From Candidatus Woesearchaeota archaeon (GTDB lineage: Archaea > Nanobdellota > Nanobdellia > Woesearchaeales > UBA10216), in contig JACPTG010000003.1 of NCBI GenBank assembly GCA_016192905.1, positions 124,001 through 188,000 on the forward strand: a DNA stretch of 64,000 nucleotides, in the 5' to 3' direction. The notes beneath the pieces were generated by a model. It worked only from the letters and a program-made list of their open reading frames with translations, ran no database searches and was not told the DNA's origin. The position numbers were made by a program, and so were the translations under genes. Position 1 is the stretch's first letter. Each line of letters begins with the position of its first letter. Shown piece after piece: positions 24,559 through 42,481 of this stretch.

Positions 24559-24668
24559 GGGCCCATAGCTTAGCCTGGTAGAGCGGTTGACATTTAGGCC
24601 GATGCTCTTATCCCCAGGTTTTGGAGGCAGTGACCAACAGGTCCAGGGTTCGAATCCCTGTGGGCCCA
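24559..24668 (+). tRNA. tRNA-Lys (anticodon CUU) with two introns
   Basis: Acceptor GGGCCCA/TGGGCCC, D arm GCTT...GAGC, T arm CAGGG-TTCGAAT-CCCTG, A73, no encoded CCA. The 53 bases between positions 27 and 43 must lose 36. Removing 24590-24603 (14 nt, between positions 30 and 31) and 24611-24632 (22 nt, between 37 and 38) gives stem GTTGG/CCAAC and loop CTCTTAA with U33 and anticodon CUU, and a mature length of 74. Intron 1 fits a canonical bulge-helix-bulge: CGGU (24584-24587) pairs with GCCG (24598-24601). Intron 2 fits with one C-C mismatch. Confidence 0.85.
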
Positions 24669-25337
24669 TCAATTCTTCTGTTTATATCTTTCGACATGAT
24701 ACTTGTTATTGGGTTTAATTGTTTCAAAGAACAAAGCAATACTCGTTTGGTCTGTTATCCTGAACAAGTGAGCGCCATTACTTGTGCTTATTTTAGTTGT
24801 AGTGATTTTAAGTCTGTTTAGAACATCCTTGACCTGTTTAATCAATTTTGGCTGCTTCATCTTGATCTGCACGACTTTGTATTTATAGTGCTTTGAATGA
24901 TTGGCGTATTTTTTTGAGTATCGATTGTAGACTGTTCCATCAGTATCAAAAATTCCACGCACACAATCAATTGCCGCCTCATTTTTATCAAATATCCACT
25001 TAGGAATGAAGAGTCTTGTTTTTTTCCCGACAGGCAACCCAGCTTCTTGCATGGATTGGAAGAGTTCTTTTCTCATAGTTACTAGAACTATGCAATTCAC
25101 TTTAGCTCTTGGTCTAATTCGAGCAGAAAAGCCATATAATTTTTTGATGATTGGTTGAATTGAATTTTCGTAGTAATCTCGATCATGCGTATGTCCTGTT
25201 AAAAGGCTGCAGTAACGGGGGTTTTTTCGATCTTTCGGAGAGTATTTTGAAATGCACCCATCACCCAAAAAAGCGCCAAACAATTCTGCGAACTGATGCT
25301 CTGATGAAGAGTTGTTAAATGGCGGATATAGATGCAT
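24669..25337 (-). CDS. LAGLIDADG homing endonuclease
   Basis: A 222-aa free-standing double-motif endonuclease: first motif ELFGAFLGDG (about residues 18-27), second CVRGIFDTDG (about 125-134), each with the metal-binding acidic residue at its end. Such enzymes make site-specific double-strand breaks and spread their own gene. Its stop codon begins on the base after A73 of tRNA-Lys, and beyond its start lies a second tRNA 3' end (25468-25492), so it is bracketed by tRNA sequence. The gene is clearly more AT-rich than its neighbours, consistent with acquisition by transfer. Confidence 0.93.
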   Translation of the reverse strand: MHLYPPFNNSSSEHQFAELFGAFLGDGCISKYSPKDRKNPRYCSLLTGHTHDRDYYENSIQPIIKKLYGFSARIRPRAKVNCIVLVTMRKELFQSMQEAGLPVGKKTRLFIPKWIFDKNEAAIDCVRGIFDTDGTVYNRYSKKYANHSKHYKYKVVQIKMKQPKLIKQVKDVLNRLKITTTKISTSNGAHLFRITDQTSIALFFETIKPNNKYHVERYKQKN

Positions 25338-25432: not shown

Positions 25433-25492
25433 ATATAAATTTGTAAAATTGCGAAATTTAAGCCGGCGAGGGTTCGAATCCCTCCGGGCCCA
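25433..25492 (+). other. orphan tRNA 3' half (T arm and acceptor strand) behind its own TATA-like element
   Basis: 25468-25484 is a perfectly paired T arm (GAGGG-TTCGAAT-CCCTC), followed by CGGGCCC and A73 at 25492 and then a T run. No D arm or GGGCCCG strand is found upstream. TATAAATTT at 25433-25441 is about 25 bases before where such a transcript would begin. It resembles the tRNA-Lys 3' end, but the differences are compensatory pairs, not random decay. It could be a split-tRNA half, or an attachment-site relic of the endonuclease element. Confidence 0.5.
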
Positions 25493-25605
25493 TTTTTCTC
25501 GTTACTGGCTTCGTCCCCGGAAGGTTTCATGCCCTGCGACTGAAAAGATGCAAGATTTTTTAAGCCGGGCTGACCAATCCGAAGAAAAAGTGAAGGATGA
25601 TGCAA

Positions 25606-39363: not shown

Positions 39364-39520
39364 TGCCGCCGACCGGCTTTGAACCGGCGACCTCACCGTA
39401 CAGTTAGGCTTGTCCTAAGCTGCTCCACGTGACCCAGTCAGCGTTAGTCATCGACCTTACCAGTCTCAGCGCTCATTGATTTATGAGCGTGGCGCTCTGA
39501 CCAGGCTGAGCTACGGCGGC
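39364..39520 (-). tRNA. elongator tRNA-Met (anticodon CAU) with two introns
   Basis: Acceptor GCCGCCG/CGGCGGC, A73 at 39364, D arm GCTC...GAGC, T arm GCCGG-TTCAAAG-CCGGT. The 157-nt gene must lose 82 nt. Intron 1 is 39431-39481 (51 nt, position 37/38): exon CUCA pairs with intron UGGG in a full 4-bp central helix with 3-nt bulges. Intron 2 is 39394-39424 (31 nt, position 43/44, variable region) with helix ACGU/ACGG (one A-G mismatch) and an inner GCAG/CTGT plus TTAGG/CCTAA hairpin. Splicing gives stem CCACG/CGTGG, loop CTCATAA and variable AGGTC, 75 nt in total. No CCA is encoded. Confidence 0.85.
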
Positions 39521-42247: not shown

Positions 42248-42355
42248 GCAACTCTGGTGCTATTTTGCCGGGTTTTATAAAGTTATCTTTGGGATAATAC
42301 AAGGGGAAATTCAAGCATAACTTTTTTAAACAAACCCGGGCAACTGCGAATCCGT

Positions 42356-42481
42356 GGGCCCGTAGCTCAGCCTGGTTAGACAGCACAAAATGCTGGACCA
42401 AAGCGCCGGTCTTATATGACCACGCTTTAAGCAAACATCTAGGAGAGCCGGATGTCGCCGGTTCAAATCCGGTCGGGCCCA
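42356..42481 (+). tRNA. tRNA-Ile (anticodon UAU) with two introns
   Basis: Body matches archaeal tRNA-Ile: GGGCCCG/CGGGCCC, TAGCTCAGCCTGGTTAG, T arm GCCGG-TTCAAAT-CCGGT, A73. The 126-nt gene must lose 51. Intron 1 is 42380-42401 (22 nt, D stem, position 22/23): GGUU (42374-42377) pairs with GACC (42396-42399), bulges AG^A and AA^A, inner stem CAGCA/TGCTG. Intron 2 is 42417-42445 (29 nt, position 37/38): CUUA pairs with UAGG. Both are canonical bulge-helix-bulge sites. Mature: GAGC D stem, CCGGT/GCCGG anticodon stem, loop CTTATAA, 75 nt. Confidence 0.87.

What the first reader, a model, noticed from the sequence alone, without database searches (positions are those of the whole stretch)
42356..42481. 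tRNA-Ile with anticodon UAU and two canonical introns, one in the D stem
Most archaea read AUA with a CAU-anticodon tRNA whose wobble C is changed to agmatidine by TiaS. From memory, UAU-anticodon tRNA-Ile is known from a few archaea lacking TiaS (Nanoarchaeum, Korarchaeum). Here both bulge-helix-bulge helices pair in all four positions (GGUU/GACC and CUUA/UAGG), which makes the anticodon reading robust. A D-stem intron is itself unusual.
Basis: partly seen in the sequence, partly recalled or inferred. Interest (0 to 1): 0.8.

Follow-up and report, generated by a model that had tools for sequence, protein, structure and literature searches.

The report
Intron-bearing tRNA-Ile(UAU) reading AUA
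This archaeon reads the codon AUA with a tRNA whose anticodon is plainly UAU instead of the usual archaeal chemically altered CAU tRNA; its whole phylum lacks the altering enzyme, and nearly all its members keep an intron in this tRNA that forms a conserved helix around the anticodon.

Summary
42356-42481 (+) is a tRNA gene with two introns, 42380-42401 (22/23, D stem) and 42417-42445 (37/38). Spliced, it is a complete tRNA-Ile with anticodon UAU. The genome (Woesearchaeota, DPANN) has no TiaS and no full-score TilS. The CAU pattern found one elongator tRNA, the eMet in this window; initiator Met has CAU too. AUA is the commonest isoleucine codon in the window's main genes.

This is not a rarity of one genome. 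TiaS is absent from all 279 phylum genomes searched, and a strict pattern finds UAU tRNA-Ile in 152 of them, none in the reversed control. The trait was known from N. equitans, K. cryptofilum and ARMAN-2; here it looks phylum-wide.

Less expected: 129 of 130 UAU genes read keep a 37/38 intron, against 8 of 29 for tRNA-Ile(GAU). Intron bases +2 to +5 complement exon bases 29-32. Pair 30:+4 holds in 120 of 121 genomes outside one family, with G-C to C-G switches in seven families. This suggests an anticodon stem-loop mimic in the precursor, possibly for intron-dependent modification near U34; that function is inferred. TruA/Pus1 is absent from 276 of 279 genomes, so the yeast enzyme is not the agent; Elp3 is present.

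The parts
42356..42379 (+). tRNA-Ile(UAU) exon 1, G1 to G22 (acceptor 5' strand, D arm)
   Evidence: sequence, Rfam RF00005, ARAGORN on the spliced form
42380..42401 (+). intron 1 (22 nt) at 22/23 in the D stem, bulge-helix-bulge GGUU/GACC with inner helix CAGCA/UGCUG
   Evidence: pairing read; same intron position in same-family genome G007 (L288)
42402..42416 (+). exon 2, A23 to A37, including anticodon stem 5' strand 42406-42410
42413..42415 (+). anticodon UAU (34-36)
   Evidence: spliced form read as tRNA-Ile(tat) by ARAGORN
42417..42445 (+). intron 2 (29 nt) at canonical 37/38, bulge-helix-bulge CUUA 42411-42414 / UAGG 42440-42443
   Evidence: intron at the same place in 129 of 130 UAU genes of the phylum
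42408..42421 (+). conserved exon-intron helix GGUC 42408-42411 / GACC 42418-42421 (29-32 with intron +2 to +5) enclosing the loop UUAUAU
   Evidence: covariation over 146 genomes; -4.6 kcal/mol alone
42446..42481 (+). exon 3, A38 to A73
42322..42330 (+). TATA-like TTTTTTAAA about 26-34 bases upstream of the gene
   Evidence: read by eye, not tested
39364..39520 (-). elongator tRNA-Met(CAU) with two introns, the only hit of the CAU elongator/Ile2 pattern in this genome

Best explanation
The gene makes tRNA-Ile3(UAU), which reads AUA directly by U34-A pairing and replaces the usual archaeal pair TiaS + tRNA-Ile2(CAU). The replacement appears to hold across this Woesearchaeota-containing DPANN phylum. 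Shown from sequence: two BHB introns to be removed by the splicing endonuclease, a complete mature tRNA, no TiaS, and one elongator CAU gene by pattern. Shown comparatively: the 37/38 intron is nearly fixed, and its 5' end pairs with exon bases 29-32 to mimic the anticodon stem around UUAUAU. Inferred (about 35% likely): the intron is kept because this precursor hairpin, or the BHB-paired anticodon, is the substrate for a modification at or near U34 (or A37) that keeps the tRNA from misreading AUG, in analogy to yeast pre-tRNA-Ile(UAU) but with a different enzyme.
For: Spliced fold and tRNA-Ile(tat) call. TiaS PF08489: 0 in own genome, 0 of 59 relatives, 0 of 279 in the phylum, 220 of them at least 90% complete, while four archaeal control genomes ring. 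TilS only at 44 bits against a 93.6 cut-off, and the four archaeal controls also ring. UAU pattern in 152 of 279 genomes, 0 reversed-control hits, never more than one per genome. CAU pattern once in own genome, the eMet. AUA is the commonest Ile codon in 21 window genes: 256 of 645. Introns: UAU 129 of 130, GAU 8 of 29, eMet 12 with and 16 without. Pair 30:+4: 120 of 121 genomes outside family f88, shuffle mean 98.5, switched in f3, f5, f38, f45, f60, f69, f71. GAU and eMet introns lack the complementarity (mean 1.4 and 2.3 of 4, against 3.55). TruA/Pus1 missing in 276 of 279; Elp3 present.
Against: The strict pattern misses 127 of 279 genomes, so the UAU tRNA is not shown there; D-arm introns or variant D stems explain some of them. 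Several expected tRNAs of this genome were not recovered, so a multiply interrupted Ile2(CAU) could have been missed. No RNA data exist for expression, splicing or modification. One genome (G216) has an intronless UAU gene, and family f88 breaks the 30:+4 pairing in 8 of 25 genomes, so neither feature is absolutely required.
Confidence: 0.88

Rival explanations
1. The 37/38 intron is kept for splicing reasons only: the +2 to +5 complementarity helps the precursor fold or orders the removal of several introns and has nothing to do with modification.
For: Bases +2 and +3 also pair with -7 and -8 in the BHB inner helix. Many of these genes have further D-arm or T-loop introns.
Against: Base +4 does not pair with -9 in the BHB but covaries with exon base 30. 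The helix excludes the BHB central helix at base 32, so it should hinder splicing. GAU and eMet introns of the same phylum do not show it.
Confidence: 0.35
2. The intron protects the anticodon from a premature or wrong modification (for example by Elp3) until a later step, as reported for ncm5U34 in yeast tRNA-Ile(UAU).
For: Elp3 is present at 614 bits. In yeast the intron blocks ncm5U34 (PMC11408192).
Against: It does not predict a conserved ASL-like hairpin, which should offer the loop rather than hide it.
Confidence: 0.2
3. The gene is a pseudogene or minor tRNA, and AUA is read by an undetected Ile2(CAU) with another modifying enzyme.
For: The tRNA inventory is incomplete and the assembly is 95% complete.
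Against: All stems are intact, the gene type is conserved across about 60 families, and both modifying enzymes are missing.
Confidence: 0.03

Closest known systems
tRNA-Ile3(UAU) of Nanoarchaeum equitans and Korarchaeum cryptofilum
   Same: UAU anticodon and no Ile2(CAU) tRNA (PMC8450103; PMC6000648); an intron in the K. cryptofilum gene
   Different: Here the trait is shown across a phylum sample, with a second intron in the D stem and a covarying exon-intron helix. Those species' introns were not compared.
[quoted passage not shown]
   Same: DPANN archaeon; BHB-type intron cleaved in vitro by its splicing endonuclease (PMC12397907)
   Different: No D-stem intron is mentioned in the passages read; its intron sequence was not compared.
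Eukaryotic pre-tRNA-Ile(UAU) with intron-dependent pseudouridine 34/36 (yeast; three-intron gene of Cyanidioschyzon merolae)
   Same: An intron in a tRNA-Ile(UAU) gene; C. merolae also has a D-arm intron (PMC11408192; PMC9602550)
   Different: The enzyme family PF01416 (TruA/Pus1) is missing in 276 of 279 genomes here
TiaS + tRNA-Ile2(CAU) system of most archaea
   Same: Same task, reading AUA as Ile and not AUG
   Different: TiaS absent in all 279 genomes; anticodon encoded as UAU

Membership tests
tRNA-Ile3(UAU) | complete tRNA fold with anticodon UAU after splicing | tested here: met
tRNA-Ile3(UAU) | TiaS absent from the genome | tested here: met
tRNA-Ile3(UAU) | no tRNA-Ile2(CAU) | tested here: inconclusive
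   one elongator CAU gene by pattern, but the tRNA inventory is incomplete
tRNA-Ile3(UAU) | charged with isoleucine and reads AUA only | not testable with these tools
   needs RNA and aminoacylation data; A73 and AUA usage are consistent
archaeal BHB tRNA introns | 4-bp central helix between two 3-nt bulges | tested here: met
   both introns; over the phylum 74 of 90 introns pair all four positions
intron-dependent pseudouridine 34 by Pus1 | a TruA/Pus1 family enzyme | tested here: not met
   PF01416 absent in own genome and 276 of 279
intron-dependent U34 modification in general | a modified nucleoside that needs the intron | not testable with these tools
   no RNA data

The most novel reading that the evidence does not exclude
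A whole archaeal phylum matures its AUA-reading tRNA through an intron that rebuilds a decoy anticodon stem-loop before splicing, used by an unidentified enzyme (not of the Pus1 family) to modify the wobble uridine. This would be an archaeal counterpart, perhaps convergent, of the intron-dependent maturation of eukaryotic tRNA-Ile(UAU).
Probability: 0.3. Interest if true: 0.85.

Novelty: new variant of a known kind. Interest (0 to 1): 0.62.

Why it matters
How AUA is told apart from AUG is a classic decoding problem with separate solutions in bacteria, archaea and eukaryotes. This phylum appears to have given up the standard archaeal solution entirely. The near-fixed intron and its covarying helix turn the long-standing question of why tRNA introns persist into a direct experiment: change one base pair and measure U34 modification and AUG misreading.

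Tried and rejected
An intronless UAU pattern gave mostly chance matches, reversed control as frequent as the pattern; it contained one real gene (G216). The rpS3Ae scan of named genomes returned only one Woesearchaeota relative, enough for placement but not a name for the species. Pus1-type pseudouridylation was rejected. TilS was rejected because the match is below the cut-off and archaeal controls ring too. The idea that +2 to +5 is conserved only as BHB inner helix was rejected because +4 and -9 do not pair. Literature searches for TiaS with DPANN gave no relevant paper. An apparent A33 in the tRNA at 24559 was resolved as a second intron in a tRNA-Lys(CUU).

Full report
The finding is real. 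Bases 42356-42481 form a tRNA gene whose two interruptions each fit an archaeal bulge-helix-bulge intron. Intron 1 is 42380-42401, between positions 22 and 23 of the D stem; intron 2 is 42417-42445, at the canonical 37/38. The spliced RNA is GGGCCCG UA GCUC AGCCUGGUUA GAGC G CCGGU CUUAUAA GCCGG AUGUC GCCGG UUCAAAU CCGGU CGGGCCC A, read by ARAGORN as tRNA-Ile(tat). Each BHB central helix pairs in all four positions, with one G-U in each.

TiaS (PF08489) is absent from the window's genome, from 59 relatives and from all 279 genomes drawn from the phylum, 220 of them at least 90% complete, while four archaeal control genomes ring. TilS appears only below cut-off, as it does in archaeal controls. 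A pattern for elongator-type tRNAs with CAU gives one hit in this genome, the elongator Met gene at 39364-39520; the initiator gene is elsewhere (L039). AUA is the most used isoleucine codon in 21 window genes, 256 against 210 AUU and 179 AUC, so a dedicated AUA reader is needed.

A named relative of the window's rpS3Ae is a Woesearchaeota genome at 46% identity, so the source is a DPANN archaeon of that group; the species itself is not named.

The trait is widespread. A strict pattern for UAU tRNA-Ile with an ordinary D arm hits 152 of 279 genomes, at most once each, with no hit of the reversed control in any genome. The pattern misses genes with D-arm introns, such as the window's own, so 152 is a lower bound; a second pattern found more such genes, including a same-family genome with the same two-intron gene. 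The literature held here lists UAU tRNA-Ile in N. equitans and K. cryptofilum only, out of 167 archaea (PMC6000648; PMC8450103), and uses an intron-bearing ARMAN-2 example (PMC12397907). No paper on TiaS loss across DPANN was found.

Two further regularities were not expected. First, the pattern stops at A37 and so cannot favour introns, yet 129 of 130 UAU genes read have an intron at 37/38. Ninety-one genes, the one intronless gene among them, were spliced cleanly by script; the other 39 were read by eye, most having a further interruption in the T loop. tRNA-Ile(GAU) genes of the same phylum have one in 8 of 29, and elongator Met genes in 12 of 28 clear cases.

Second, intron bases +2 to +5 are complementary to exon bases 29-32. 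Pairs 31:+3 and 32:+2 hardly vary and carry little covariation information. Pair 30:+4 does: outside family f88 it forms in 120 of 121 genomes (shuffle mean 98.5, maximum 106), being G-C in 106, C-G in 12 and G-U in 2, with C-G in families f3, f5, f38, f45, f60, f69 and f71. Pair 29:+5 also exceeds its shuffles (85 against 75, maximum 81); 28:+6 does not. In the BHB, +2 and +3 pair with -7 and -8, but +4 does not pair with -9, so the BHB does not explain it. In effect the start of the intron copies bases 39-41 and closes a small hairpin around UUAUAU. Family f88 has relaxed this: 8 of 25 genomes break it. Families are not fully independent events, but repeated double changes in separate families are strong evidence for a helix.

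What the helix does is inferred. The closest precedent is yeast, where Pus1 makes pseudouridine 34 and 36 only in the intron-containing precursor (PMC4090602; PMC11408192). The Pus1/TruA family is missing from 276 of 279 genomes here, so the same enzyme cannot be the agent. Elp3, a U34 modifier, is present in the window's genome. A role in splicing order or folding is the main rival. Modification at U34 or A37 is my preferred reading at about 35%, with the decoding role of the tRNA itself well supported.

The D-stem intron is shared with one same-family genome, and D-arm introns at other sites occur in other families. Non-canonical introns, many in the T loop, are common in this genome and phylum, so it adds little surprise.

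Noticed in passing
window 24559-24668 (+): tRNA-Lys(CUU) with an anticodon-stem intron as well as the canonical intron; the spliced form folds well.
   Followed up: partly
window about 25465-25495 (+), and 24669-25337 (-): A tRNA 3'-half-like sequence (CCGGCGAGGGTTCGAATCCCTCCGGGCCCA) lies downstream of a LAGLIDADG_3 protein gene that abuts the tRNA-Lys gene; split tRNA, element remnant or chance is open.
   Followed up: no
L033 (G000:C1:113122-113200, -): A type II tRNA with long variable arm, G73 and a serine-like acceptor stem has anticodon CCU, besides an ordinary tRNA-Arg(CCU) in L034; AGG is by far the main Arg codon (381). If charged with serine it would misread AGG. A Ser(GCU) gene was not found.
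   Followed up: partly
L030-L035, L037, L039, L041 and L138-L234: T-loop introns (often TTCAAA...GAAAGTC) are very common in tRNA genes of this phylum; initiator Met (L039) and a tRNA-Phe with an odd acceptor 5' end (L028) are hardly recognised by the Rfam tRNA model.
   Followed up: partly
L103-L132: Elongator Met introns in several genomes contain GATGA/CTGA-like motifs as in box C/D guide RNAs, possibly guiding methylation of the anticodon loop.
   Followed up: no
G135, G159, G279 (family f87): The only genomes of the sample with a TruA/Pus1 family protein; the UAU pattern has no hit there.
   Followed up: no
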